From NCBI RefSeq assembly GCF_014385435.1, contig NZ_JACSUD010000017.1:1-55858 (forward strand): 55,858 bases of DNA. Direction: 5' to 3'. Both the position numbers and the translations under genes were made by a program. The notes below the pieces were generated by a model, which was not told the origin of the DNA, searched no databases, and was given only the letters and a program-made list of their open reading frames with translations. This document shows positions 11,447-27,300 of the stretch, one piece after another (the stretch's first letter is position 1; each line of letters starts with the position of its first letter). This stretch comes from Alloprevotella sp. Lung230. GTDB lineage: Bacteria > Bacteroidota > Bacteroidia > Bacteroidales > Bacteroidaceae.

Positions 11447-14262
11447 TTAGAACATCCCTTAAATTTGAGTACCTTTGCAGTATGAGTAACAACCACGGAC
11501 GATGAGCTGTACGCTCTCTCTTAGTTGTGATTTGCTTAAATTTGAGTACCTTTGCAGTATGAGTAACAACCTTTCAATGAGGGAGATTAGGTCGTAGGGG
11601 TTGTGATTTGCTTAAATTTGAGTACCTTTGCAGTATGAGTAACAACTAGGACAATTTCTGACAATCACACCGTTCCGTTGTGATTTGCTTAAATTTGAGT
11701 ACCTTTGCAGTATGAGTAACAACACGCGCCCCGCGGCGGCAAACCGCGGCAGTGTTGTGATTTGCTTAAATTTGAGTACCTTTGCAGTATGAGTAACAAC
11801 CTCTTCGGCCTTTACGCGGTTGTCGGCCTGGTTGTGATTTGCTTAAATTTGAGTACCTTTGCAGTATGAGTAACAACAATCCCCTGGGGCGGTGGCTATC
11901 GTATTGCGTTGTGATTTGCTTAAATTTGAGTACCTTTGCAGTATGAGTAACAACTGAGAAGGGAATTTTACGTACTCATTATGAGTTGTGATTTGCTTAA
12001 ATTTGAGTACCTTTGCAGTATGAGTAACAACTGCGGTGGGTCTGTGCATCACAGCTACCTTGTTGTGATTTGCTTAAATTTGAGTACCTTTGCAGTATGA
12101 GTAACAACCTTCGGCAGGAAGACCCTTGTTGTTACCGTGTTGTGATTTGCTTAAATTTGAGTACCTTTGCAGTATGAGTAACAACTGGGAGTACTGCAAA
12201 ACCTACCCAACGCTGGTTGTGATTTGCTTAAATTTGAGTACCTTTGCAGTATGAGTAACAACAGATGCTTCCGTAGAGCAGGCTGCGCAAATGTTGTGAT
12301 TTGCTTAAATTTGAGTACCTTTGCAGTATGAGTAACAACGAGAAGCAAGAACTCTTCGATTTGATGAAAGTTGTGATTTGCTTAAATTTGAGTACCTTTG
12401 CAGTATGAGTAACAACCGCTCCGACAGTCCAAAGCTAAAGAATATAGTTGTGATTTGCTTAAATTTGAGTACCTTTGCAGTATGAGTAACAACACGGCAA
12501 GCCTATCGAGGAACTCTTTCCGACGTTGTGATTTGCTTAAATTTGAGTACCTTTGCAGTATGAGTAACAACCACGACAAAAATAGTAATTTCATTTTGAT
12601 AGTTGTGATTTGCTTAAATTTGAGTACCTTTGCAGTATGAGTAACAACATACTTCAACGACGAAGTAAAAGGCTTGTAGTTGTGATTTGCTTAAATTTGA
12701 GTACCTTTGCAGTATGAGTAACAACGATACTCCCCAAGAAGAAGATACAATACTCGTTGTGATTTGCTTAAATTTGAGTACCTTTGCAGTATGAGTAACA
12801 ACGAGCGACTCGGGTTCATCTGGGTAATCATAGTTGTGATTTGCTTAAATTTGAGTACCTTTGCAGTATGAGTAACAACCCGCTTGCGCCAAAGATGCGG
12901 AAGGCTGTGGTTGTGATTTGCTTAAATTTGAGTACCTTTGCAGTATGAGTAACAACGACGAGAGGAGCGGTAGAGAGAAGAAGTCGTTGTGATTTGCTTA
13001 AATTTGAGTACCTTTGCAGTATGAGTAACAACGAAAAGGCGGGTATGATGACGGCAAAAGATGTTGTGATTTGCTTAAATTTGAGTACCTTTGCAGTATG
13101 AGTAACAACGGTGCGCTCGAGAAGTCGGCGCAGACCTAGTTGTGATTTGCTTAAATTTGAGTACCTTTGCAGTATGAGTAACAACTCCACTCGGTGGTCA
13201 GTTCTACCACCGGGGGTTGTGATTTGCTTAAATTTGAGTACCTTTGCAGTATGAGTAACAACAGGGAAAGTTGAAGGTGAGCGTCCGCGCGAGTTGTGAT
13301 TTGCTTAAATTTGAGTACCTTTGCAGTATGAGTAACAACTTGACCAGCGCGCCATGGCGTTCTTCTCCTGTTGTGATTTGCTTAAATTTGAGTACCTTTG
13401 CAGTATGAGTAACAACGCGATGCGCATGGGCATACCAAAGATTTCGTTGTGATTTGCTTAAATTTGAGTACCTTTGCAGTATGAGTAACAACTGACGAAT
13501 GAAGAGTTTGTAGGCTGGTTCTGTTGTGATTTGCTTAAATTTGAGTACCTTTGCAGTATGAGTAACAACAGTGCAAAAATAGCCCCTTTTTCCGATGTAG
13601 TTGTGATTTGCTTAAATTTGAGTACCTTTGCAGTATGAGTAACAACTTCGTGGCTGTTGCGCTTAAACGCCCACTTGTTGTGATTTGCTTAAATTTGAGT
13701 ACCTTTGCAGTATGAGTAACAACTGCAACGTTCCGAAGTACTCGTATTTAACGGTTGTGATTTGCTTAAATTTGAGTACCTTTGCAGTATGAGTAACAAC
13801 AGATGAACGCCGAGGTTACAGCTGCAAATTGTTGTGATTTGCTTAAATTTGAGTACCTTTGCAGTATGAGTAACAACAGGCTCTCTATCACTTGAAATCA
13901 TTGCGCAGTTGTGATTTGCTTAAATTTGAGTACCTTTGCAGTATGAGTAACAACCAAATCAATATATATGTAGATTGAAACTTTGTTGTGATTTGCTTAA
14001 ATTTGAGTACCTTTGCAGTATGAGTAACAACGTTTCTGCATTAAAGTTGCCCTTGCAGCCCGTTGTGATTTGCTTAAATTTGAGTACCTTTGCAGTATGA
14101 GTAACAACATTCTCACCGCGAAAATAGGGATTTAATCTGTTGTGATTTGCTTAAATTTGAGTACCTTTGCAGTATGAGTAACAACGAACTCGCGAGCGCT
14201 CCTCCGATTTGTGCAGTTGTGATTTGCTTAAATTTGAGTACCTTTGCAGTATGAGTAACAAC
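11447..14262 (+). CRISPR. Type II-C CRISPR array, 37 repeats, 36 spacers
   Basis: A 47-bp repeat starting GTTGTGATTTGC and ending GTATGAGTAACAAC alternates with spacers of 29-31 (mostly 30) bp, a 77-bp period. The repeats are essentially identical from 11524 to 14262. The first (11447-11493) is degenerate only in its first 11 bases. The 47-bp length and the GTTGTGATTTGCTT start match Bacteroidetes II-C repeats as I recall them; the crRNA sense is the plus strand by that comparison, opposite to the cas genes. Each repeat holds an internal promoter (see the separate entry). I saw no spacer matching elsewhere in the window, but I could not search this exhaustively. Confidence 0.98.
11525..11554 (+). 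promoter_or_regulatory. Promoter inside the CRISPR repeat (first full copy)
   Basis: Within each repeat, TTG at repeat positions 2-4 and TACCTTTG at positions 24-31 are separated by 19 nt, the same spacing seen at cdd, susC and the IS5-like transposase in this window. The TACCTTTG box is identical to that of gmd. Initiation would fall near repeat positions 36-40, so each transcript would begin with a few repeat bases and then the next spacer. The coordinates mark the first full copy; it recurs every 77 bp or so through the array. Confidence 0.7.
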
Positions 14263-14329
14263 TCATTCTTGCTAAATGTCTATTTATTAGAAAGTTACGT
14301 CGTAATTTAGTAATAAAAAAGGTACTATC
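14263..14329. other. AT-rich candidate CRISPR leader
   Basis: About 67 bases of AT-rich sequence with no gene directly follow the last, fully conserved repeat. The degenerate repeat is at the opposite end, so by the usual rule that decay marks the oldest end, new spacers would enter here, on the cas-proximal side. This is inference from repeat decay alone. Confidence 0.4.
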
Positions 14330-14370
14330 AAAATGAAGAAGATTGGTTGACACCATATCTTCTTCATTTT
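14330..14370 (-). terminator. Strong hairpin between array and IS element
   Basis: A 14-bp perfect stem (AAAATGAAGAAGAT / ATCTTCTTCATTTT) continues through a one-base bulge into TGGT-TGAC-ACCA, giving 18 paired bases. On the minus strand it is followed within about ten bases by a T6 run, so it may originally have ended the cas transcript before the IS inserted. It would also block array transcripts on the plus strand. Confidence 0.55.
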
Positions 14371-14476
14371 CTATTAACCCCAATTCGGGATTAGCCTTGC
14401 GTCTTCCTTCCTTAAATAGTCGTCCCTTAAATTCCCATTTATCATCTGATATTCAGTAATTTAATTAAGATATTCC

Positions 14477-14507
14477 TTTGATAAATCTGCAAGTTTTCTT
14501 ATCTTTG
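14477..14507 (+). promoter_or_regulatory. Promoter of the IS5-like transposase
   Basis: TTTG at 14477-14480, a 19-nt spacer and TATCTTTG at 14500-14507 match the Bacteroidetes promoter. The transposase ATG at 14531 is 24 bases downstream. Confidence 0.7.
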
Positions 14508-14530
14508 TATTCAGAAACTTGCAGATTTTT

Positions 14531-15840
14531 ATGATTAAAAAGCCCTATCCCAGCCCTTCATTATTCAGCAGTTTGTCGGATATGCCGGCCCCCTCTCGCC
14601 CTCTCTACAAACTCTCCGACAAAATAAATTGGGAGAAATTCGATGCTGCTTTCCGGCCTTTGTATTGTCAGCACAATGGTCGCCCAAGTAAGCCGATACG
14701 TTTGATGTGTGGTTTGTTGATACTCAAGCACCTTCGCAATCTCTCAGATGAATCCGTTGTGGAGCAATGGAGTGAAAACGCTTATTATCAATACTTTTGT
14801 GGTATGCAGGAGTTTATACCCGGTGCTCCTTGTGCCTCTTCCGAATTGGTTCACTTTCGCCATCGCATTGGAGAGGAGGGTATTGAACTCATCTTTCAAG
14901 AAAGCATTCGTGTCAATAACGAAGATGATGATGAACATCATCATGATACCGCTTTTATCGATTCAACCGTTCAGGAAAAGAACATCACTTTTCCTACGGA
15001 TGCCAAGTTGCATAAAAAGATAGTGGGCAAGGTTCTGCATCTCGTCGATAAACTGCATCTTCCTCTTCGCCAAAGCTATACCTTTGTGTTGAAAGGCATT
15101 TATCGCGACCAACGTTTCCGCAATCACCCCAAGAACCGCAAGAAGGCACTGAGAGCAGACCGGAAATTGCGGACAATAGCCGGGCGGTTGGTTCGAGAGC
15201 TCAAGCGCAATCTTGGAGAGAATTCTCTCTACACTGAACTCATTGATAGATTTCAAACCATTCTTTCACAAAGACGTAACAGCCGGAAAAAACTTTATTC
15301 CATTCACGAAGCCCAGGTGCAATGTATCAGTAAGGGAAAAGAAGACAAGAAGTACGAATTCGGCAACAAGGTCTCCATCATACGTTCGGCTACGGGTGTA
15401 TCATTCTTGGTGCGATGTCTTTTCGTAATGAATATGACGGACACACGATAGAAGCTGCGTTAGGACAAGTTGAACGTCTCACACAACGAAAGATTAAAAT
15501 ACTTGCAGGAGACAGAGGTTATCGAGGTAGGAAAGAGGTGAATGGTACTCAGATTTTAATACCGGACAGCCCCAAGCCATCAGAGAGCAGATATCAAAGG
15601 CGTAAGAAACACAAACTATTCTGCAAGCGGGCAGGCATAGAACCTACCATTGGACATTTGAAAGCAGATCATCGTTTAGGCCGCAACTTTTACAAAGGTG
15701 TGGTAGGAGACGCTGTAAACATACTGATGGCAGCAGCTGCTTACAACTTCAAAAGAGCCATGAGAGTTCTTTTGTGGCTGCTCAAAATAATAAGCGAGAG
15801 GCAGGGGAGGAGTGACTTTTTACTTATCAAAGCTTTTTAA
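14531..15840 (+). pseudogene. IS5-like transposase, frameshifted
   Basis: The first frame (14531-15451) carries the N-terminal DUF772-type region (LCGLLILKHLRNLSDESVVE, YFCGMQEFIPGAPC) and the first catalytic Asp in AFIDSTVQEKN. The second frame (from about 15400 to 15840) carries GDRGYRGRKEV with the second Asp and RRKKHKLFCKRAGIEPTIGHLKADH with the Glu. Reading passes from one to the other near 15400, where adding one base after GGTGTA would give TGVIILGAMSFRNEYDGHT. No slippery heptamer is visible, so a one-base deletion is more likely than programmed frameshifting. The element is probably immobile. Confidence 0.8.
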
Positions 15841-15850
15841 GGGACGACTA

Positions 15851-15954
15851 AATATAGGCACGCAATGACTCTTCCGCCCTTGATCTAGAGTGAATGAAAA
15901 TTGTTTCACAAAATGAGAAGTCAGAACACTGTTAGCAGTTTAACGTCCATTGTT
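15851..15954. other. Spacer between the two IS remnants
   Basis: About 100 bases with no recognisable gene. This is where original sequence between array and cas2 may survive. No anti-repeat matching the CRISPR repeat was found in it on either strand. Confidence 0.3.
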
Positions 15955-16506
15955 TCTTCTATCTTGAAAGTACAGAAATGTACGCCGTCTCGGTCCTGTG
16001 TCTCGTTTCTCTGATTTGGGCGCCGGACTTTGACTATTGCGTATCCCAAGGAAAGCACTACTTCGGCTATAAACTCCACGTGCTCTGTGGTTTAATGGAG
16101 TCATCCATTCATACGACCCTCCCAAGGCGAGTGTATACGACATCAACTATATGAAGGACATCAAGCCGCTTTACCGCGATTGCTGCATCTTTGGAGACAA
16201 GGGATACTCAGTGCGGAAGTCCAACTTGACCTTTTCGAGACGGTCAATATCAGACTTGAATGCCCCTACAGGCTCAACCAAAAGAACCGGAGGCCAACCC
16301 TTATCCCTTTCGCAAAGGCACGAAAGAGAGTTGAAACTTTGTTTTCGCAACTTGCTGATCAGTTCCTCCTCATCAGGAACTACGCAAAGGAAACCTGCGG
16401 ACTTTTTGCCCGAGTAGTAGGAAGAATCAGTGCGATGACCACATTACAATGCATCAATTACATTAACAACAAACCCATAGGAAGGATTAAGTACGCACTG
16501 ATTTAA
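15955..16506 (+). pseudogene. Remnant of a second IS transposase (DDE type, possibly IS982 or IS4/IS5 group)
   Basis: Pieces of a DDE transposase lie in shifted frames. FDYCVSQGKHYFGYKLHVLC is at about 16031-16090. INYMKDIKPLYRDCCIFGDKGYS (16140-16210) holds a catalytic-type GDKGY. After a shift come QLDLFETVNIRLECPYRLNQ and RKRVETLFSQLADQFLLIRN, ending NNKPIGRIKYALI at 16506. The N-terminal part is missing or unrecognisable and at least two frameshifts break it. It runs toward cas2, whose stop is 22 bases beyond. I am unsure of the IS family. Confidence 0.7.
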
Positions 16507-16527
16507 TTCCGCCAGCGGGTTAAGAAT

Positions 16528-16893
<366 letters not shown>

Positions 16894-17830: not shown

Positions 17831-20800
17831 TTATCTAATGATTTTGGTGATGTTGCCGAGACGGTCAACTTCGAGTTTCCAGCATACGGATTTGATTATC
17901 TCGCCGGTAAGTGCACGTTGATGCTTGGATTGAGGACTTCCTAATCCGAGTTCGTTCTGTATATTGTTGATGGGAGTCTTTACATTAAGGAGAGTCGTCG
18001 CAATTCGATGAGGAATAAAATTCGCAGTGGTGTTGCTTGAATCGATAAATTTATATATCCGTTCTCTTTGCAAATCTTCGACTTTCATATTGCTTCCGAT
18101 TTCCTCTTCGTTAGGTACATAGACGAGGTCGTTCGGAGAGAGGAAGAATTTCAGCGAAATGTTTTTATCATTACTGTCCGGAACAGGTGATAGACCTTGC
18201 TTGAGACGTTCGACCACTTCGATGAGTTGGATAGTTTCATAGGAGCGTTTGCCCTCGCCATCTTCAAAGATGGCAAAGTAAAGATTGGTGCCACTTTGAG
18301 CTTCAACAAACTTTGTTTTACGATTGCCTCGTTGTCCGACAGGGTATTTATTGCCGAGTAGTTCAAATATACGTACCTTTTTAATGGGTTGATGGGATTT
18401 TCCGTCATTGAACTTTGCTATGTTGGCATTAAGTTCGATAATCCCTTCAGGAGAGAAAGCCACCTTAGGGTCATCTCCTTTGTACTTCAAAAAGTTGAGC
18501 AAAATCTTTTGAATACCAGTATCGGTGATTTTTGCTATGGACTCCTTATCAAAATTTTCGTTCAGAGGTTTGCGTGAGGCAACGAGTGGTTCTCTATCAT
18601 CACTCATCACCCAAATTTCCACCTTACTAATATCACGATTTTCAAACTTATTTCCTAAAGTCTTGAAGTGTTTTTTGAGTTGCTTTGTATCAAAATTTTG
18701 TGCAATGAGGTGTAAAATGTATTCGCGCAAAGCTTTATCCACAATATTTTGTGGACGTTCCAAAGCGTAGGCAAGAGAAACCATCAAGGGATAGCGCAGG
18801 TTGACACGCCCAAACGGCATGCCTTTATGCATAGGTTTACGTATAGCCCACAATGTTTCCCCTTTTTGAGGAATATATTTCTTCTTGCCTTGCTCGTAGT
18901 GCTGGTAGAAATTGGTCGCTTTATTGATAATACGCACATAGTTCTTGAAACTTACCACCACCCCATGCAATGCCTGCTCGACATCTTGGGTAAAAGTTTT
19001 CCATGGTTTACGTAAAGTGCGACCTTTGTCGCAAAGTTGTTTGCGCAAATCCTCCCTACTTTGTGGTGAGGCTGCGTTCTCATTGTTGAGATAGTTGATA
19101 ATGTTATGCGAGGCGCAAGCAATGACGAGTGCATCCATTGCGTGATGTCGGTGGTCAATGCGCTTCTTAGAGTAGCCTTTTTGCAATTCGATCGGCATTG
19201 AGGTTTGGAACACACGCTTTCCGTCTTTATTCTCCCAATGACCAAAATCTTCTGAGTTGGTCAGCTTATTAAGACGTTGATAGCGAGGAGAGACTAGGTG
19301 ATTCCAAACATCTTGTAGCCCCCAGTCTTTCTTCAGACGATCAGTAATGCCTCCGGTACATACAATGACATGTTTCGACTTGGCCTCTTCTTCTCCTTCT
19401 TCTCGAACGAGATTGGAGAGGACGGATTGTATGAAGCGGGCGATATAACGAGAGTCGTTGAGCTGACGCTGTATAAACTCTGTTGGGATATCATCCAAAA
19501 GGAGTTTGCGTCGTTTGGTTGCATTGTCTTTGTAGATATGCTTTACCAAACTTTCATAATCATCCACTTTGAGTACGCGTAAATCACCCAGGGATTGTGA
19601 ATGGATAATTTCCCCTCCCCGTTTAGTAATAAATTCGTGGGCAAGCATACTACTTTTAGCTTTGTTGATTTCTGCCTCACAAATCACTTTGTTGCTGAAA
19701 GAATCATCGAAGAAGCGTTTCTGAGGAATCACATGTTCTATTTCATAAGCAGGAGTAAATAGTTTTGTGAGAGAGATGAAGCGACCGGTGTAAGGAGATT
19801 GGTATTTTTGTTCTAACCAAAGTTTGTAGCGCTTCATCTCGCTCGCAGAAGGCTGAGACTTCTGAGAAATCTTGATGATCTCATCATAATCTTGGTCGCT
19901 TTTTTCGAGGGTGGCCAAAGCACCCTCTTCGTAAATACGCAAGATGTCTTGCTGACTGGGTGAATATGGACGGACATCGCTGATAGTTGCATCATTTTTG
20001 AGTTCCATCAGTAGTGCTTTGATACGCAGCTTGGTGTTCTCATTGCGTTGGATGCGTTGACTGTCGTCTTGCCGTTGTTTAGCCGTTTTCTTCATCTCAC
20101 GCCCCATTTCGAGATGGATTTCATCAATATCTCCGAATTTCTTCCAAATGTCGTAGACCGTCCGTAGCGTTTCAAGCACCACTTGTTCAACTATCGGGTT
20201 CCTGAGGGAGTGCTGCTTGAAGTTATGGATATAGTTTTGCAAATCTTGGAGTGTTTCCCAACGCACAATCTCGCTCACTTCACTATGACGTCCATAAATG
20301 ATATAGCTGGCCAGCCAAACTGGAAGACCTTGGAAGTCTTCGAGTTTTTGGAGCGGGTAGCTCTTGTGCTGCATTTTGTCACGCAGCTTTTCGTCAATGT
20401 TTCCTGCGATTATGTTGTCAATTCGTGCTCGAGTGGTTGTATCAATGGCGTCAGCATTCCAAAACGAACCTTTACGCAGAAGAGTCAGAAAGCGTTTAAT
20501 GGCTTTTTCTGAGAATGCACCATAATCCTTTTCAAAAGGTTTGATACGTGTAAATACTCTGATTTGCTCTTGACTCAAACCACGTTTACGTAAGGCTTGC
20601 TCCAATTCCAACTTATCAGTGACGGAGTAGAGCAGATGCCACCACTGCATTTCACCTTCTCGGGTGTTGAGCTCAGCGGTGTTCATTTCTGCCTTTTCGA
20701 AAGTTGTGAGGAGGGTTGCTCGTGTTTCGTTGCAAGGATAAGTTTTCTCCTTGTCTTCGGCGTAATTCCAGTGAATCGGGTAAACGCTATTCCTTCCTTT

Positions 20801-22312
20801 GGGCTTCTTCCATCCAAAAAACTCTTTGAATAGTGTGTCTTGATTGATTTCTTTACGATTGTAGAGAAAAGCGTAAAGGCGCTCCCATTCTTCAGACGTT
20901 GAGAGATATCGTGAGGTGACGTCCTCTTGACTATCACGATCAAAAAGACGGATGTTGGTGATAAATTGCCACAGACGAAACTCTTGGTAATACGGATTTG
21001 AACGAGCAATACATTTGATGGGACGGTCTATACATTCCCCCGTTGAGTGGTCTATTGAGATACGTTTCTCGAGCGAGCAGTTACTGATTAAGTTTTTCTT
21101 GCTTTTAAGAGGACGCTGATAGAAAATGATGTCATCAAGGAAAAGATAAATGAAGTCTTTGCTTTGCAATTTTTGACGCTGTGCCTCGTTGCTGGGGTAC
21201 AGGTTGGCGATGCAGTCTTGTAATAACGCTTGGTCTTGCAACTCGGGTATAAACTCTGTTTGCTTTGTGAGGATTGCACGTAGTTCTTGTTTATAAAATT
21301 TACGTTCGATAGTGTGCACGAAATTTCCTCTGATTTTCACTTTGGGACGATCTCGCAAGGCCTGGTAGATGAAAGTGCCTACATGCAGTCCACTCTCTTC
21401 AATATCGTGCTCTGTGCGCTTTTTCCGAAGTGTCCAATCATCGTCTTTGGGAATACGAAAACTGCGTTTTACATTCCCCTCCTTATCAAGCTTCAATGTG
21501 ACACCATCAGCTTCATATTCTGTGGTAACAATGAATTGACGAGTTTGGCCGACCCAATTCTCCAAAGAGATAGCACTGGTACGCCGGTCAATCATACCAT
21601 TGTCGAGATACACATTGTACCAAGTACTCTTGCCTTTCTTCCTATCCGTGGCTTCCACACGTACCACGCGGGCTTCTAAAAACTCCACGCGCTTTGTTTT
21701 ATCCTCTTCTTCTTCCTCGCCGCGCAATTGATAATAGCCACGTTTTTGATTGAAATTGAGGATTATCCAAGCCAATTCTTCTTTACTGATTGGAGCACGT
21801 AACGCTTTGCTGCGCAGATAGTAGATGGTCCAGTCGAGTGGCACCTTTTGGTCGGGTGTCCAGCTCGAATCGTGTGCCATAAAGTCGGCAATCATCTCAT
21901 GGAACGAGTCCATAAAAAGAAATTCCATTTTACCATCTTTATTACGTCTCCAAGCTAATTTCGGTTCGCTTTCATCGAGAAACTTTCCGTAGGTTTTGTT
22001 GTCATTCTTATCCCAGCCAATGGATTGATCAAAGTGTTGAGGAAGAAAACCCATCATGTGGAGTACGCGAAACAAGCGCTCTCTTCTCTGTAGAGAGCGC
22101 TCACGCAAATGGCGAGTTGAGCGATATTGGGTACGCTCAGCCGTTTGTGATACACTGATGCCACTTTCAAATTTTCCCATCACGTCTTGCGACATCGGGA
22201 TGATACGACTGCCTAAACGTATTTTTTCAATTAGGTTACCATTGTCGTCAAAAACTAAGTAGGCCCAACCAATACTATTGGTACCCAGGTCCAAACCAAG
22301 AATTCTTTTCAT
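17831..22312 (-). CDS. cas9: Type II-C CRISPR nuclease Cas9
   Basis: A 1493-aa dual-nuclease effector. RuvC-I is KRILGLDLGTNSIGWAYLVF with Asp8; an arginine-rich bridge helix covers about residues 60-85 (RSTRHLRERSLQRRERLF). RuvC-II is DEIHLEMGREMKK with Glu735. The HNH domain is YEIEHVIPQKRFFDDSFSNK with His860. RuvC-III is RIDHRHHAMDALVIACAS with His1057 and Asp1060. All catalytic residues are intact. The lack of csn2 and cas4 and the 47-bp repeat place it in II-C. It is much longer than typical II-C Cas9 (about 1000-1100 aa) but fits the large Bacteroidetes branch. No own promoter was seen; cdd lies 55 bases upstream on the same strand, so read-through is possible. Confidence 0.97.
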   Translation of the reverse strand: MKRILGLDLGTNSIGWAYLVFDDNGNLIEKIRLGSRIIPMSQDVMGKFESGISVSQTAERTQYRSTRHLRERSLQRRERLFRVLHMMGFLPQHFDQSIGWDKNDNKTYGKFLDESEPKLAWRRNKDGKMEFLFMDSFHEMIADFMAHDSSWTPDQKVPLDWTIYYLRSKALRAPISKEELAWIILNFNQKRGYYQLRGEEEEEDKTKRVEFLEARVVRVEATDRKKGKSTWYNVYLDNGMIDRRTSAISLENWVGQTRQFIVTTEYEADGVTLKLDKEGNVKRSFRIPKDDDWTLRKKRTEHDIEESGLHVGTFIYQALRDRPKVKIRGNFVHTIERKFYKQELRAILTKQTEFIPELQDQALLQDCIANLYPSNEAQRQKLQSKDFIYLFLDDIIFYQRPLKSKKNLISNCSLEKRISIDHSTGECIDRPIKCIARSNPYYQEFRLWQFITNIRLFDRDSQEDVTSRYLSTSEEWERLYAFLYNRKEINQDTLFKEFFGWKKPKGRNSVYPIHWNYAEDKEKTYPCNETRATLLTTFEKAEMNTAELNTREGEMQWWHLLYSVTDKLELEQALRKRGLSQEQIRVFTRIKPFEKDYGAFSEKAIKRFLTLLRKGSFWNADAIDTTTRARIDNIIAGNIDEKLRDKMQHKSYPLQKLEDFQGLPVWLASYIIYGRHSEVSEIVRWETLQDLQNYIHNFKQHSLRNPIVEQVVLETLRTVYDIWKKFGDIDEIHLEMGREMKKTAKQRQDDSQRIQRNENTKLRIKALLMELKNDATISDVRPYSPSQQDILRIYEEGALATLEKSDQDYDEIIKISQKSQPSASEMKRYKLWLEQKYQSPYTGRFISLTKLFTPAYEIEHVIPQKRFFDDSFSNKVICEAEINKAKSSMLAHEFITKRGGEIIHSQSLGDLRVLKVDDYESLVKHIYKDNATKRRKLLLDDIPTEFIQRQLNDSRYIARFIQSVLSNLVREEGEEEAKSKHVIVCTGGITDRLKKDWGLQDVWNHLVSPRYQRLNKLTNSEDFGHWENKDGKRVFQTSMPIELQKGYSKKRIDHRHHAMDALVIACASHNIINYLNNENAASPQSREDLRKQLCDKGRTLRKPWKTFTQDVEQALHGVVVSFKNYVRIINKATNFYQHYEQGKKKYIPQKGETLWAIRKPMHKGMPFGRVNLRYPLMVSLAYALERPQNIVDKALREYILHLIAQNFDTKQLKKHFKTLGNKFENRDISKVEIWVMSDDREPLVASRKPLNENFDKESIAKITDTGIQKILLNFLKYKGDDPKVAFSPEGIIELNANIAKFNDGKSHQPIKKVRIFELLGNKYPVGQRGNRKTKFVEAQSGTNLYFAIFEDGEGKRSYETIQLIEVVERLKQGLSPVPDSNDKNISLKFFLSPNDLVYVPNEEEIGSNMKVEDLQRERIYKFIDSSNTTANFIPHRIATTLLNVKTPINNIQNELGLGSPQSKHQRALTGEIIKSVCWKLEVDRLGNITKIIR

Positions 22313-22367
22313 GTTTAAAGATGATAAGGTCTGATTAAAATAAAGTTGAGTTCCGATTCGCGCTCAA

Positions 22368-22856
22368 TCACAACGCATCGCTGTCGAAGCGCAGAGGCAG
22401 TAGGGCTGAGGCCGTTTCGACCTCGAAGATACCGTTGCGGCCGTAGAGCAGGACGCGGATGGGACGGCCGTAACGTTTTTCCGTCTCGACCAAAACCTGC
22501 CGGCAGACGCCACAAGGGCTGATGGGATTGTCCAAAAACTCTTGGTCTTCCTCGCGCCATGCTGCCACAGCGATGGCCACGGGAGCCACATCGGGCCGAC
22601 TGGAGTTGGCATAGAAAATGGCGGTGCGCTCGGCGCAGGTGCCGGCGGGATAGGCTGCGTTTTCCTGATTGGAGCCACACACGATTTCGCCATTCTCCAA
22701 CAGCAAGGCCGCCCCTACATGAAAATGCGAGTAGACGGCATAGCTCGTTTGGGTGATTTTTTTGGCGCGTTCCACCAAACGGCGATCCAGTTCGGAGAGT
22801 TCGCTGCCATCGGCATTATAGTGGGTGAGGGTCGTGCTGAGTTGGGTCTTCTTCAT
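22368..22856 (-). CDS. cdd: Cytidine deaminase
   Basis: A 162-aa zinc enzyme that turns cytidine or deoxycytidine into uridine in pyrimidine salvage. The zinc and active-site motifs are intact: AGTCAERTAIFYANS (the C-A-E motif with its catalytic Glu) and NPISPCGVCRQVL (the PCxxC motif). The ATG at 22856 (MKKTQLSTT) fits family length; an upstream in-frame start at 22946 would read through the promoter. It may be the first gene of a transcript continuing into cas9. Confidence 0.93.
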   Translation of the reverse strand: MKKTQLSTTLTHYNADGSELSELDRRLVERAKKITQTSYAVYSHFHVGAALLLENGEIVCGSNQENAAYPAGTCAERTAIFYANSSRPDVAPVAIAVAAWREEDQEFLDNPISPCGVCRQVLVETEKRYGRPIRVLLYGRNGIFEVETASALLPLRFDSDAL

Positions 22857-22900
22857 AAGGTTGAATAATAAGGATGAAACGTAAAAGAGGGATGTAACTG

Positions 22901-22930
22901 CAAAATTACTTAAAAGATGCACTTGAACAA
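22901..22930 (-). promoter_or_regulatory. Promoter of cdd (and possibly cas9)
   Basis: Minus strand: TTG (plus-strand CAA at 22928-22930), 19 nt, TAATTTTG (plus-strand CAAAATTA at 22901-22908). This matches the Bacteroidetes promoter well, 45 bases before the cdd start. Confidence 0.72.
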
Positions 22931-23026
22931 GCCCACAGCCTTGCATTTTTGTGGAAAAGAGGGGAAAAACCAGTGATTACGGCTTTTTTTTCGTAATTTA
23001 GCGCCTCAAAATCACTTCCCAACTCC

Positions 23027-23461
23027 ATGTTTAGACCTCTTTCCCTCGCTTTCTTTGGGGCGACCCTTCTGCTGGCAGCCTGCCAGTCCAAGGGCTCACA
23101 AACCTCTGAGCGCCGCCGGCAAGCCGAAGCGCAGGCGCGGAGCTTTCTTGTAGAAGCCCGTGCCCACTTGCAGCAACACGACTTTGCCCGAGCGCGACAA
23201 CGCATCTACGCCATGCGCGACAGTTGTCGCTATGCCCTCGAAGCTCGCGAAGAGGGGATTGTGTTGCTGGACAGCGTGGAACTGCTCATGGCACAGCACC
23301 ATCTGCAAGGGGTCGATGGGCGACTGCTGGCCGCGCAAGAGCGAGGAGCAATGGCCGAGGCCGAACGGCTTCAACGGCAATTTGACGAAATCTGCCGACA
23401 AGTGAAATTCTATCAACGCAAACTACAATATGACAAACAGCAACGCCGGTCACATCCTTGA
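23027..23461 (+). CDS. Small lipoprotein of unknown function
   Basis: A 144-aa protein with a clear lipoprotein signal, MFRPLSLAFFGATLLLAACQ (Cys19). The mature part is highly charged and helical, rich in Arg, Gln and Ala (QAEAQARSFLVEARAHLQQH), probably coiled-coil. I do not recognise a named family. Its end overlaps the start of the helicase gene by 32 bases, so the two are probably co-transcribed. It diverges from cdd. Confidence 0.72.
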   Translation: MFRPLSLAFFGATLLLAACQSKGSQTSERRRQAEAQARSFLVEARAHLQQHDFARARQRIYAMRDSCRYALEAREEGIVLLDSVELLMAQHHLQGVDGRLLAAQERGAMAEAERLQRQFDEICRQVKFYQRKLQYDKQQRRSHP

Positions 23462-25862
23462 CCCCTATCAGCGCGAAGAAGCTGCCTTCGTGGTGCGCCC
23501 CGACAGTTTCTGGCAGGAACAACTCAACGACAGCCAGTGGGAAGCCGTGCGCCATTGCGACCGCCCGCTGTTGGTCATTGCCGGAGCGGGTTCGGGCAAG
23601 ACACGCGTCTTGACCTACAAAATTGCCTACCTATTGGAACATGGCTATAAGCCGTGGGACATCTTGGCGCTCACCTTCACCAACAAAGCCGCCAAGGAGA
23701 TGAACGAACGCATTGCCCGCATCGTGGGGCCGGGACGTTCACGCGGGCTGTGGAGCGGCACGTTTCACAGTTGTTTTGCGCGCATCCTTCGAGCCGAAAG
23801 CGAAGCCGTGGGCATGAAGTCCGATTTCTCCATCTATGACGCCGCCGACTCTCGCTCCCTCATCAAGAGTATCATCAAGGAGCGTGGACTGAACGACAAA
23901 ACCTACGCCCCCTCGCGCATTCAGGGACGCATCTCTTCGGCCAAAAACAATCTCATCCTGCCTCAGGACTATGCAGCCGATGCCCAAATTCAGGCCTACG
24001 ATCAGCGCGAAGGCATCGGTGAAACCCATCACATCTACACCGAATACTTTCGGCGTTGCCGCACGGCAGGGGCTTTCGATTTCGACGACCTCCTGCTCTA
24101 CACCTACCTCCTCTTTGCCCACAACGAAGAGATACGCCAGCGCTATGGGCAGCGTTTCAAGTATCTCCTTGTCGACGAATACCAAGACACCAACTACGCG
24201 CAGCACGCCATCGTCTCCCTCCTCACCCGCGACAACCCCCACATCTGCGTAGTGGGCGACGATGCCCAGAGCATCTACTCTTTCCGCGGAGCGAAGATTG
24301 ACAACATCCTCCACTTCCATCGCCAATATCCAGAAGCCATCACCGTCAAGCTCGAGCAAAACTATCGCTCCACCCAAAACATCGTCGGTGCGGCCAACAG
24401 TATCATCGCCCACAACAAGGGGCAGATAGAAAAGGTGGTGTTCAGCGAAAACGAAGAAGGCGACAAAATCCGCGTCATGCCCGCCGCCACTGACAAGGAA
24501 GAGGCGGCCAAGGTGGTGGGCGTCATCGCGCGGCTGCACCGCACGGAAAGCGTGGGCTTCGACCAAATCGCCATCCTCTATCGCACCAACGCCCAGAGTC
24601 GCTCCTTCGAGGACGTGCTCCGCGAGCGCAACTTCCCCTACCGCATCTACGGCGGTCTTTCGTTCTATCAGCGCAAGGAAATCAAAGACATCCTCGCCTA
24701 CCTCCGCTTGCTGAGCAATCTCGACGACGAGGAGGCTTTCAAGCGCGTGGTCAACTATCCCGCCCGCGGCATCGGCAATACCACGCTTCAAAAACTCTTT
24801 ACCGCCTCACGCGAGCACGGCGTGAGCCTCTGGAGCGTGGCCGAGCATCCTGATGCCTATGGTGTGGCGCTCAATCGCGGTACCCTCGGCAAGCTCGCAG
24901 CCTTCTGCACCCTGTTGCGCGACTTTCAGGCACAGGCCGCCCGTCTCGGTGCGTTTGACCTCGTGCTGAAGGTCATCAGCGAGTCGGGCATCAAGGCGGA
25001 TCTCGACCGCGAAGATGGTCCCGAGGGCGACAGCCGCCGCGAGAATGTCGAGGAGTTGCTGGGCGCCATCCGCTCCTTTGAGCATGAGGTCTTGGGCGAA
25101 AATACCCAGGGACGTGTCCCTGTCACCGACTATCTGCAACAATCGGCCCTCCAAACCGATGCCGATGAAAAGGATGATGGCACGCCCAAAATCACCCTTA
25201 TGACCATCCATGCCGCCAAGGGACTTGAGTTTGACGCAGTCTTTGTCACGGGGCTGGAGGAAAACCTCTTTCCCGGCAGTCAGGCCCGCTTGTTTGCGAA
25301 CGAGATGGAGGAGGAGCGCCGCCTCTTCTACGTGGCTGTGACGCGTGCCAAGCGCTTCTGCTATCTGAGCTATGCGCAGTCGCGCTACCGCTACGGCAAT
25401 CTGGAAGTTTCGGACGAAAGTCTTTTCGTGGGCGAAATCGACCGGCGCTTTGTCGTGAAAGATGCCTCCTCGTCCGACGCTCTCATCGGTGGCATTGCTC
25501 CCTCGTTGCGCAAAGCTCTCTTCGGGGTAGACTCCGCGGCCGAACCGCCCCGCCCGAAGCCAGCCTTTCGCCCTTCGTGTTTCGAGACTTCTGCTCCCTC
25601 TCGGGGAGGACAGACGCCTCGTCCTGCACCGCTCGCCAAGCCTTTGCGGCGGGTCGAGACACCCCCAGCTGCAATCAGTGGAAGCGTGCACCCCGCTAGG
25701 CTCGCCATCGGCACTTGCATTGACCACGAGCGTTTCGGCCGAGGGCGCATCACGCAGATTGAGGGCAGCGGTGACAACGCCAAAGCCACGGTCGAGTTCG
25801 ACCTCTCCGGTCGCAAAAACCTCTTGCTCAAGTTTGCCAAATTCACTGTGGTAGAGGCTTAG
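23430..25862 (+). CDS. UvrD/PcrA-type DNA helicase
   Basis: An 810-aa superfamily 1A 3'-5' helicase. Motifs in order: LNDSQWEAVRH (Q motif), LLVIAGAGSGKTRVLTYKIA (Walker A), LALTFTNKAAKEM (Ia), YLLVDEYQDTNYAQ (II, DExx), VVGDDAQSIYSFRGAKI (III), LEQNYRSTQNIV (IV), TLMTIHAAKGLEFDAVFV (V) and RRLFYVAVTRAKRFCYLSYA (VI). The C-terminal 135 or so residues are low-complexity and end in a Tudor-like fold (GRGRITQIEGSGDNAKATVE), as in PcrA. It likely unwinds DNA in repair and replication. I cannot tell UvrD from PcrA by sequence alone. Confidence 0.93.
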   Translation: MTNSNAGHILDPYQREEAAFVVRPDSFWQEQLNDSQWEAVRHCDRPLLVIAGAGSGKTRVLTYKIAYLLEHGYKPWDILALTFTNKAAKEMNERIARIVGPGRSRGLWSGTFHSCFARILRAESEAVGMKSDFSIYDAADSRSLIKSIIKERGLNDKTYAPSRIQGRISSAKNNLILPQDYAADAQIQAYDQREGIGETHHIYTEYFRRCRTAGAFDFDDLLLYTYLLFAHNEEIRQRYGQRFKYLLVDEYQDTNYAQHAIVSLLTRDNPHICVVGDDAQSIYSFRGAKIDNILHFHRQYPEAITVKLEQNYRSTQNIVGAANSIIAHNKGQIEKVVFSENEEGDKIRVMPAATDKEEAAKVVGVIARLHRTESVGFDQIAILYRTNAQSRSFEDVLRERNFPYRIYGGLSFYQRKEIKDILAYLRLLSNLDDEEAFKRVVNYPARGIGNTTLQKLFTASREHGVSLWSVAEHPDAYGVALNRGTLGKLAAFCTLLRDFQAQAARLGAFDLVLKVISESGIKADLDREDGPEGDSRRENVEELLGAIRSFEHEVLGENTQGRVPVTDYLQQSALQTDADEKDDGTPKITLMTIHAAKGLEFDAVFVTGLEENLFPGSQARLFANEMEEERRLFYVAVTRAKRFCYLSYAQSRYRYGNLEVSDESLFVGEIDRRFVVKDASSSDALIGGIAPSLRKALFGVDSAAEPPRPKPAFRPSCFETSAPSRGGQTPRPAPLAKPLRRVETPPAAISGSVHPARLAIGTCIDHERFGRGRITQIEGSGDNAKATVEFDLSGRKNLLLKFAKFTVVEA

Positions 25863-25911
25863 CCGCCCTTTCGTGTGGGGTTCTGCTCCTCTCCTTTCCC
25901 CGCTTTCCTCT

Positions 25912-25953
25912 ACGGCAACCATCGACTCTCAGAGCCGATGGCTGCCGTTTTTT
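25912..25953 (+). terminator. Terminator of the helicase gene
   Basis: Stem ACGGCA-a-CCATCG with CGATGG-c-TGCCGT around an 11-nt loop, then six T. It lies 49 bases after the stop codon. Confidence 0.88.
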
Positions 25954-25988
25954 CTTGCTGGAGCGGATGTTCCGTCCCCATCCAATAG

Positions 25989-26054
25989 CCTTTCTCACGG
26001 TGGTAAATTTATTTTCAACGTGGTGAAAACTCATTTTCAACGTGGTGAAAATTC
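25989..26054. repeat. 22-bp tandem palindromic repeats (two perfect units, one decayed)
   Basis: Units at 26011-26032 and 26033-26054 differ at one base, and a weaker copy precedes them at 25989-26010. Each holds the dyad TTTTCA-ACGTGG-TGAAAA. The core TTTCAACGT and the 22-bp step are shared with the block at 1424-1575. It lies between the converging helicase and fcl genes and their terminators. Confidence 0.85.
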
Positions 26055-26088
26055 TGCTACCTCAGACCCACGAACTCCGGAAAGGAGA

Positions 26089-26138
26089 AGCGGTGCCCCT
26101 CTTTCGTCCGTAAGGACGAGGAGGAGCACCGCTTTTTT
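26089..26138. terminator. Terminator hairpin between converging genes
   Basis: Stem AGCGGTGC / GCACCGCT (26089-26096 with 26126-26133) with an inner TCGTCC-gtaa-GGACGA hairpin. It has a T6 tail on the plus strand and a weaker pyrimidine tail on the minus strand. It lies 26 bases after the fcl stop on the minus strand, so it may act in both directions. Confidence 0.8.
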
Positions 26139-26163
26139 GAGGGGGAGGAATGTCGGTGGCCGA

Positions 26164-27300
26164 CTATTGAGCAGCGTGGTTGATGCAGATGCCTTGCCGA
26201 TACCATTGGTAAAGGCGGTGGATACCTTCTTCGATTTCGATCTTGTGATGCCAACCCAAGCTGTGGAGTTTGCTGACATCACAGAGTTTGCGGAGGGTGC
26301 CGTCGGGCTTGGAGGCGTCCCAGCGCAGCGCACCACGAAAACCGATTTCTTGGACGATGTGCTCGGCAGCTTCGCGGATGCTGATTTCGCGACCAGTGCC
26401 CACGTTGATGTGGCAGTTGCGCACTTCTCGCAGGCCATCGGCATTGGTGGGGGAGGATGTGCAGGTGGCGCGGAAGTCGACGTTGAGCAGGACGTGCACA
26501 CTGGCATCGGCCATCTCTTCGCTCCACAAGAACTCGCGCATCGGAGCGCCTGTTCCCCAAAGAGTGACGGCCTCGGGGGTGATGCCGTAGTCGCTCAGCA
26601 CAGCCAAGATGTCGACCTCGGAGGAGGTGTCGTCGATGCGTTGCGTGGTGCTGCGTCGAGTCACCGGGCGCAACTTCAAGTCTTGGCGTACCGCGTCCCA
26701 ATCGCCCTCGTTGAGACAGCGGGCCAGGTGAATTTTGCGTATCATCGCCGGCAGCACGTGGGAGTTTTCGAGGTGGAAGTTGTCGTTGGGGCCGTAGAGG
26801 TTGGTGGGCATCACGGCAATGTAGTTGGTACCGTATTGGAGATTGAAACTCTCGCACATCTTGAGTCCTGCGATTTTGGCAATGGCATAGGGCTCGTTGG
26901 TGTATTCGAGGGGGGAGGTGAGCAAAGTGTCTTCGGACATCGGCTGCGGAGCTTCGCGAGGGTAGATGCAGGTGCTGCCCAGGAAGAGCAGATGTTGCAC
27001 TCCGTGTCGCCAAGCCTCTCCGATGACGTTTTGCTGGATCTGAAGGTTGCGATAGATGAAGTCGGCCCGATATTGCAGATTGGCCATGATGCCACCCACA
27101 TGGGCTGCGGCAAGGACAACAGCGTCGGGGCGCTCGGCATCAAAAAACTCTCGCACGGCCACACCATCGAGCAAGTCGAGCTCGGCGTGGGTTTTCCCCA
27201 CGAGGTTGCGGTAGCCGCGGGTTTGGAGGTTGTCCCAGATAGCAGAACCCACCAAGCCGCGATGACCGGCGACGTAGATTTTTGCGTTTTTCTCTAACAT
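26164..27300 (-). CDS. fcl: GDP-L-fucose synthase
   Basis: A 378-aa short-chain dehydrogenase/reductase that epimerises and reduces GDP-4-keto-6-deoxymannose to GDP-L-fucose. Visible are the Rossmann loop KIYVAGHRGLVGSAIW, AAAHVGGIMANLQY, the catalytic Ser in LLFLGSTCIYPREAPQPM and the YAIAK Tyr-Lys pair, then PTNLYGPNDNFHLENSHVLP. It has a longer middle segment than the E. coli enzyme (321 aa). It lies 12 bases downstream of gmd and completes the two-step pathway from GDP-mannose. Confidence 0.94.
   Translation of the reverse strand: MLEKNAKIYVAGHRGLVGSAIWDNLQTRGYRNLVGKTHAELDLLDGVAVREFFDAERPDAVVLAAAHVGGIMANLQYRADFIYRNLQIQQNVIGEAWRHGVQHLLFLGSTCIYPREAPQPMSEDTLLTSPLEYTNEPYAIAKIAGLKMCESFNLQYGTNYIAVMPTNLYGPNDNFHLENSHVLPAMIRKIHLARCLNEGDWDAVRQDLKLRPVTRRSTTQRIDDTSSEVDILAVLSDYGITPEAVTLWGTGAPMREFLWSEEMADASVHVLLNVDFRATCTSSPTNADGLREVRNCHINVGTGREISIREAAEHIVQEIGFRGALRWDASKPDGTLRKLCDVSKLHSLGWHHKIEIEEGIHRLYQWYRQGICINHAAQ

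What the first reader, a model, noticed from the sequence alone, without database searches (positions are those of the whole stretch)
11447..14262. Every CRISPR repeat carries a complete Bacteroidetes promoter
Inside the 47-bp repeat, TTG (repeat positions 2-4) and TACCTTTG (24-31) are 19 nt apart. The same architecture is seen at five or more unrelated genes of this window (cdd 19 nt, IS transposase 19, susC 19, rlmD 20, gmd 20, tRNA-Gly 21), and the gmd -7 box is identical. Transcription would start near repeat positions 36-40 and run into the next spacer, so all 36 spacers could be expressed independently without a leader promoter and perhaps without RNase III processing at the 5' end. Repeat-internal promoters are known in Neisseria and Campylobacter II-C arrays, where they use a sigma70-type -10. 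A version rewritten for the Bacteroidetes sigma factor would be a convergent solution, and it places a constraint on repeat evolution.
Basis: partly seen in the sequence, partly recalled or inferred. Interest (0 to 1): 0.82.

Follow-up and report, generated by a model that had tools for sequence, protein, structure and literature searches.

The report
CRISPR repeats that carry promoters
Each repeat of this CRISPR-Cas9 array carries the core signal at which Bacteroides-type bacteria start transcription, and the signal is kept by selection in many relatives, so each stored virus memory is probably read out from its own switch; no RNA has been measured yet.

Summary
Observation confirmed: 36 identical 47-bp repeats plus one decayed terminal repeat, all with TACCTTTG at positions 24-31; the 36 intact ones also have TTG at 2-4, 19 nt upstream. 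Among 102 distinct 45-49-bp II-C repeats of relatives, 66 have a perfect TAnnTTTG 17-23 nt after positions 2-4 and 93 have at least 5/6 (shuffle means 0.9 and 12.8). On a Cas9 tree its six fixed letters changed 1-16 times each, its two free letters 19 and 24, flanks 24-48. tracrRNA pairing does not explain it: 96 of 101 anti-repeats stop before TTTG. The same box precedes tracrRNA (106 of 148 perfect). Leaders and upstream flanks are not enriched for promoters; leaders hold terminator-like hairpins in 72 of 107 (27 expected). The -33 TTG is not independently supported: 10 of 54 mutated terminal repeats keep it. No RNA data. Repeat-internal promoters are known in Campylobacter and Neisseria, and a TTG-only version was proposed for Flavobacterium: a new variant of a known kind. 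Extra: this genome's tracrRNA lies on another contig, away from cas9.

The parts
11447..14262 (+). II-C CRISPR array: one decayed terminal repeat, 36 exact 47-bp repeats, 36 spacers of 29-31 nt
   Evidence: repeat found only on this contig in the genome, exact match
11447..11493 (+). Terminal (leader-distal, 'extra') repeat: positions 1-11 decayed, TTG lost, -7 box TACCTTTG kept at 11470-11477
11524..11570 (+). First exact repeat: TTG at 11525-11527, -7 box TACCTTTG at 11547-11554; inferred transcription start near 11559 (repeat position 36); the same layout in all 36 exact repeats
   Evidence: start site is inference
14263..14416 (+). Leader at the 3' end of the array; no TAnnTTTG on the strand pointing into the array
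14330..14371 (+). Strong hairpin in the leader, terminator-like, ends 109 nt after the last repeat; similar hairpins in 72 of 107 related leaders
   Evidence: (fold z -5.4 for 14216-14400)
14531..15451 (+). IS5-family transposase ORF between leader and cas2
16528..16860 (-). cas2
   Evidence: TIGR01573
16906..17829 (-). cas1 (type II)
   Evidence: TIGR03639
17831..22312 (-). cas9, 1493 aa
   Evidence: TIGR01865

Best explanation
Each repeat is a promoter for the spacer that follows it. The primary sigma factor of Bacteroidota recognises TAnnTTTG at repeat positions 24-31; RNA polymerase starts near position 36 and transcribes the last ~12 nt of the repeat, the whole 30-nt spacer and the 5' half of the next repeat. 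That half (positions 2 to about 24) pairs with tracrRNA, itself started by the same kind of box a few nt before its anti-repeat, and RNase III trims the 3' side. Transcripts run towards the leader, where a hairpin ends them. Shown by sequence: box, position, conservation, strand, tracrRNA box, leader hairpin, no enriched external promoter. Inferred: sigma recognition, start site, read-through and processing.
For: Perfect box in 66 of 102 distinct repeats (29 of 53 de-duplicated), >=5/6 in 93 (47); shuffle means 0.9 (0.5) and 12.8 (7.0); first of all XXnnXXXX words in the repeat middle without prior choice; 0 of 102 perfect on the other strand. With no position limit all perfect boxes start at 23-28 except one at 31 and the window's extra one at 14. 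Fewest changes on the Cas9 tree at exactly the six fixed letters; 64 perfect boxes against 1.1 mean, 24 maximum, when columns are permuted with the tree kept. 96 of 101 anti-repeats end before TTTG. tracrRNA promoters of the same loci: 106 of 148 perfect, 143 >=5/6 (null 3.8, 49.8), TTG at gap 17-23 in 96 of 143 (22.5 expected), gaps 20 and 19 commonest. Promoters into the array: 2 of 107 leaders (2.0 expected), 2 of 77 upstream flanks (1.6); terminator-like hairpins 72 of 107 (27.1), 39 of the 72 ending 98-107 nt after the last repeat. Both halves of an IS-split F. psychrophilum array with 46-bp repeats are reported transcribed (PMC10309648, passages).
Against: No RNA data here. 9 of 102 long repeats have at most 4/6 and 36 are imperfect, e.g. 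Mucilaginibacter L183 and L036; a 57-bp repeat (L233) has none in place. Ten of 16 arrays with 36-bp repeats lack it in place, including this genome's second II-C array (L048), and I found no promoter for them. In terminal repeats the box is kept no better than the stretch after it (3.0% against 2.7% changed), so that is not independent support, and TTG is lost. Unanchored, positions 24-27 of the 47-mers changed as often as 22-23, and 36, 37, 39 and 41 changed only 12-16 times, like position 31. PMC5006608 (passages) reports no promoter in Riemerella 47-nt repeats.
Confidence: 0.85

Rival explanations
1. The box is kept as a recognition or ruler motif for Cas1-Cas2 during spacer integration, not for transcription.
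For: Repeat-internal motifs for integration are known in other types (recalled). The box sits at a near-fixed distance from the 5' end, and all repeats but the terminal one pass through integration.
Against: Two free letters inside the box match the sigma consensus exactly; the same box stands before tracrRNA, where Cas1-Cas2 has no role; some 36-bp repeats keep a 5/6 box though the distance to the 3' end is 11 nt shorter.
Confidence: 0.08
2. The array is transcribed from outside (leader or upstream flank) and the box is a relic or chance.
For: Leader-driven expression is the rule in most CRISPR types; PMC5006608 predicts leader promoters in Riemerella (passages). TAnnTTTG without TTG occurs in 13 of 77 upstream flanks (8.4 expected).
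Against: TTG-box promoters at chance level in leaders and flanks; none in the window's own leader or upstream flank; strong conservation of the repeat box.
Confidence: 0.05
3. The box is conserved because it pairs with tracrRNA or simply through shared ancestry.
For: 62 of 101 anti-repeats reach the first letters (TAnn) of the box; the repeats are homologous at their 5' end.
Against: Only 5 of 101 reach TTTG, where the two slowest positions lie; flanks of the same age changed several times more often; tree-keeping permutation does not reproduce it.
Confidence: 0.02

Closest known systems
Repeat-internal crRNA promoters of type II-C arrays in Campylobacter jejuni and Neisseria meningitidis (PMC3656092, passages; the Neisseria paper itself was not held)
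   Same: cas9-cas1-cas2 only, a promoter element in each repeat, transcription of each spacer into the next repeat, tracrRNA and RNase III for the 3' side
   Different: There a sigma70-type extended -10 (GGTAAAAT in C. jejuni) ends the 36-bp repeat and transcripts start inside the spacer; here a Bacteroidota -7 box lies mid-repeat and the start is predicted inside a 47-bp repeat
Proposed TTG repeat promoter of Flavobacterium columnare and F. psychrophilum II-C (PMC8092290, PMC10309648; passages)
   Same: Same phylum, same idea of Bacteroidota promoters in II-C repeats, transcription towards the variable end
   Different: Only TTG was named; here the -7 box is the conserved element, and TTG alone is not a marker because 36-bp repeats without the box have it too
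Decayed 'extra' repeat of II-C arrays (PMC12080349; sections 4, 16 and 20 read)
   Same: First repeat decays in its first ~15 nt; the authors suggest it must remain a promoter
   Different: They do not treat Bacteroidota promoters ('Bacteroid' occurs 0 times); here the decay removes TTG but leaves the -7 box
Canonical sigma-ABfr promoter of Bacteroides (PMC7366714; section 8 and passages)
   Different: Here it is inside a CRISPR repeat and copied with every new spacer

Membership tests
Type II-C CRISPR-Cas | cas9, type II cas1 and cas2 in one locus with an array | tested here: met
Type II-C CRISPR-Cas | no csn2 (II-A) or cas4 (II-B) in the locus | not tested
   no dedicated search for csn2 or cas4 was run
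Type II-C CRISPR-Cas | tracrRNA whose anti-repeat pairs with the repeat 5' half | tested here: met
   found on another contig of the genome, with the tracrRNA core of relatives
II-C arrays with repeat-internal promoters | promoter element in each repeat on the crRNA strand, conserved in relatives | tested here: met
   -7 box; -33 TTG inconclusive:
II-C arrays with repeat-internal promoters | one primary transcript start per repeat or spacer | not testable with these tools
   needs dRNA-seq or 5'-RACE
II-C arrays with repeat-internal promoters | sigma70 extended -10 at the 3' end of the repeat (Campylobacter form) | tested here: not met
   repeat ends GAGTAACAAC
Bacteroidota primary-sigma promoter | TAnnTTTG at -7 | tested here: met
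Bacteroidota primary-sigma promoter | TTG or TTTG at -33, functional | tested here: inconclusive
   present at the optimal gap of 19 (compare tracrRNA promoters), but its conservation is explained by tracrRNA pairing and it is lost in terminal repeats

The most novel reading that the evidence does not exclude
In Bacteroidota the long 46-48-bp repeat exists because of the promoter: the extra ~11 nt after the -7 box keep the start site inside the repeat, so the whole spacer is transcribed, unlike Campylobacter. Because all promoters fire towards the leader and a terminator stands only there, read-through adds up along the array and the newest spacers get the most transcript: a built-in bias towards recent infections.
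Probability: 0.3. Interest if true: 0.78.

Novelty: new variant of a known kind. Interest (0 to 1): 0.6.

Why it matters
It extends promoter-per-repeat expression to a phylum with a different sigma factor, by convergence or re-coding, and says where to look for the starts. It explains a conserved block in the middle of a common gut II-C repeat family that tracrRNA pairing does not account for, predicts that these leaders end transcription rather than begin it, sharpens the TTG-only proposals in Flavobacterium, and bears on a published negative in Riemerella (not tested directly here). It also matters to anyone who wants to express native Cas9 guides in Bacteroides.

Tried and rejected
The -33 TTG traced through terminal repeats gave a negative. 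Box retention in terminal repeats was rejected as support, because the stretch after it is kept equally well. A pyrimidine-A initiator 5 nt after the box: 44% of 93 repeats, but 28% of 47 after de-duplication with another offset as high; dropped. A MAFFT alignment of the repeats smeared the box through indels and was replaced by unaligned, anchored and shuffled counts. A short anti-repeat-like match at about 22366 beside cas9 was judged chance within the end of cdd once the tracrRNA core of relatives was known. A shared alternative -7 code in lineages without the box: repeat and tracrRNA box scores correlate (98 loci, rho 0.37; TTTG in both or neither, Fisher p 0.024), but phylogeny is not controlled. 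No promoter was found for the 36-bp clade. Rfam gave nothing on the displaced tracrRNA. A control in another phylum could not be set up. The opposite strand of the leaders was not tested for terminators.

Rows dropped before counting: of 181 loci scanned 56 gave no array, many because the contig ends; 128 array calls were made. Left out of the long-repeat counts: L235 (not such a repeat), a 34-nt call in L188 and a 33-nt second call in L045, L128 (consensus cut to 33 nt; it has TATCTTTG), L233 (57 nt; no box in place), and 16 arrays with 36-bp repeats, treated apart. That left 107 long arrays, 102 distinct repeats. Six arrays' loci without a readable Cas9 were left out of the tree, which left 101 long repeats. 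One search searched anti-repeats on the crRNA strand only; one search searched both strands for the first 32 long arrays: 27 best on the crRNA strand, 3 on the other (L045, L091, L099), 2 none (L113, window).

Full report
What is there. The window holds a II-C CRISPR locus: cas9, cas1 and cas2 on the minus strand, an IS5 transposase, a leader, and an array of 36 exact 47-bp repeats plus one decayed terminal repeat on the plus strand. TTG (2-4) and TACCTTTG (24-31) are 19 nt apart as reported. An exact search found the repeat only on this contig of the genome. A second Cas9 with a 36-bp-repeat array lies on contig C11 (L048); that repeat has no such box in place.

Comparison set. Cas9 searches over relatives, phylum and class and one scan of named genomes (80 of 552 confirmed relatives kept) gave 181 loci for the array scan; 107 arrays have 45-49-bp repeats, 102 distinct, 53 after greedy removal of repeats within 8 edits. 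Named hosts with such arrays include Bacteroides, Phocaeicola, Parabacteroides, Prevotella, Segatella, Butyricimonas, Dysgonomonas, Flavobacterium, Capnocytophaga, Chryseobacterium, Mucilaginibacter and Algoriphagus.

The -7 box is more than chance. A perfect TAnnTTTG 17-23 nt after positions 2-4 occurs in 66 of 102 repeats (29 of 53) and at least 5/6 in 93 of 102 (47 of 53); shuffling the middle gives means of 0.9 and 12.8 (0.5 and 7.0), a Markov null 1.1 and 14.2 (0.5 and 7.3). Ranking all gapped hexamers of four shapes without prior choice, TAnnTTTG is first in its shape (67 of 102, 30 of 53) and the leaders of the other shapes are pieces of GTATCTTTG. With no limit on position, perfect boxes start at 23-28, apart from one at 31 and the window's second box at 14. 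On a Cas9 tree of 101 long repeats, anchored on the box, the six fixed letters changed 6, 7, 1, 3, 16 and 12 times, the two free ones 24 and 19, the upstream flank 24-31, the downstream flank 35-48. Unanchored, in 60 repeats of exactly 47 bp, positions 28-31 changed 2, 8, 12 and 16 times and 32-35 changed 25-29; but 24-27 changed 13-17, like 22-23, because the box start varies, and 36, 37, 39 and 41 changed only 12-16. Column permutation that keeps the tree gave a mean of 1.1 and a maximum of 24 perfect boxes against 64 observed (all). Low change at the fixed letters and freedom at nn is what a promoter box predicts.

What else could hold it. Anti-repeats on the crRNA strand were found for 101 of 107 arrays and pair repeat positions 2 to about 24: 34 end before the box, 62 within TAnn, 5 reach TTTG. 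In a two-strand search of 32 long arrays the best hit was on the crRNA strand in 27. Pairing therefore explains positions 2-24, TTG included, but not TTTG.

A calibrated promoter in the same loci. Anchoring on the tracrRNA core, found in 149 of 182 loci, 148 distinct regions show a perfect box in 106 and at least 5/6 in 143 (null 3.8 and 49.8), most often ending 19-21 nt before the core; 96 of the 143 have a TTG 17-23 nt upstream (22.5 expected), gaps 20 and 19 commonest. In the listing the box mostly ends 1-6 nt before the anti-repeat, so the predicted start falls at the anti-repeat's 5' end. The repeat's 19-nt gap lies in this optimum.

The -33 TTG. Of 107 arrays, 79 have their first repeat inside the contig; 54 of these first repeats are mutated. 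Over the 79, 31% of positions 1-12 changed, 3.0% of fixed box letters and 2.7% of the stretch after the box. TTG survives in 10 of the 54 and the box keeps its score in 44 of 50. Of 38 that lost TTG but keep a box, 5 have a TTG at the right gap (5.1 expected). So TTG is either dispensable or its loss weakens only the oldest spacer's promoter. The box is kept no better than its 3' neighbours, so this is not independent support for it. Decay of the first ~15 nt is the published II-C pattern (PMC12080349, sections 4, 16, 20).

Where transcription can begin and end. TTG-box promoters pointing into the array occur in 2 of 107 leaders (2.0 expected) and 2 of 77 upstream flanks (1.6); box alone in 7 of 107 (11.3) and 13 of 77 (8.4). 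Neither flank of the window's array has a box pointing in. In the direction out of the array, leaders have terminator-like hairpins in 72 of 107 (27.1 expected), 39 of the 72 ending 98-107 nt after the last repeat (all); in the window the hairpin is 14330-14371. The anatomy reads out of the repeats and stops in the leader.

36-bp repeats. Of 16 arrays, five (L083, L095, L096, L206, L225) have the same kind of 5' half and a 5/6 box with the 3' tail missing, L237 has GATCTTTG, and ten, mostly of the GTTGTGGTTTGATTAAAG type, have none at the right gap, though L111 has a 5/6 match just outside it. TTG at 2-4 is present in 15 of the 16, so TTG alone does not mark this promoter. I found no canonical promoter for the ten.

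Literature. Promoters per repeat in II-C are known from C. jejuni dRNA-seq, with starts at spacer position 5 (PMC3656092, passages), and Neisseria (cited there and in PMC5006608; the Neisseria paper was not held). In Bacteroidota, PMC8092290 and PMC10309648 (passages) propose TTG as the repeat promoter, the first with eight RNA-seq reads, the second reporting transcription of both parts of an IS-split array. PMC5006608 (passages) reports no promoter in the 47-nt Riemerella repeats. Searches for TAnnTTTG with CRISPR, repeat-encoded promoters, II-C leaders with terminators and B. fragilis crRNA starts listed no paper that I recognised as placing the -7 box in the repeat; most listed papers were not opened and the library lacks most subscription journals.

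Verdict. A widely conserved, selected -7 box in Bacteroidota II-C repeats, most likely one promoter per repeat; TTG unproven; transcription itself untested. Interest 0.6: it makes a clear experiment possible, but the principle is known.

Noticed in passing
G000:C5 about 71884-71975 (-), i.e. L238:1385-1476; window 22313-22367: This genome's tracrRNA (anti-repeat, conserved core, terminator-like hairpin; TTTG-N20-GACTTTTG 4 nt before the anti-repeat) lies on another contig. The gap between cas9 and cdd in the window has none, whereas 10 of the 12 other loci printed have it close upstream of cas9 (L033 on the other strand, L118 not readable). The cas locus or the tracrRNA seems to have moved.
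   Followed up: partly
G000:C11 about 20400-26400 (L048): A second Cas9 (about 1224 aa) with a 14-repeat array of 36-bp repeats in the same genome; its repeat has no TAnnTTTG at the right gap, so the two systems must be expressed differently.
   Followed up: partly
window 14417-16520: An IS5 transposase split over two overlapping ORFs (14519-15451, 15415-15840) and a further transposase-like stretch up to 16506 separate the leader from cas2; only the first ORF was tested.
   Followed up: no
window repeat positions 14-21: The window's repeat has a second perfect TAnnTTTG (TAAATTTG), the only one of 102 repeats with a box starting at 14; its -33 region would lie in the preceding spacer, so its strength could vary from spacer to spacer.
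   Followed up: no
tracrRNA regions of relatives: The free letters of the box differ between the two sets: TATATTTG-like before tracrRNA (37 of 100) but TATCTTTG-like in repeats (47 of those with a perfect box); the reason is unknown.
   Followed up: no
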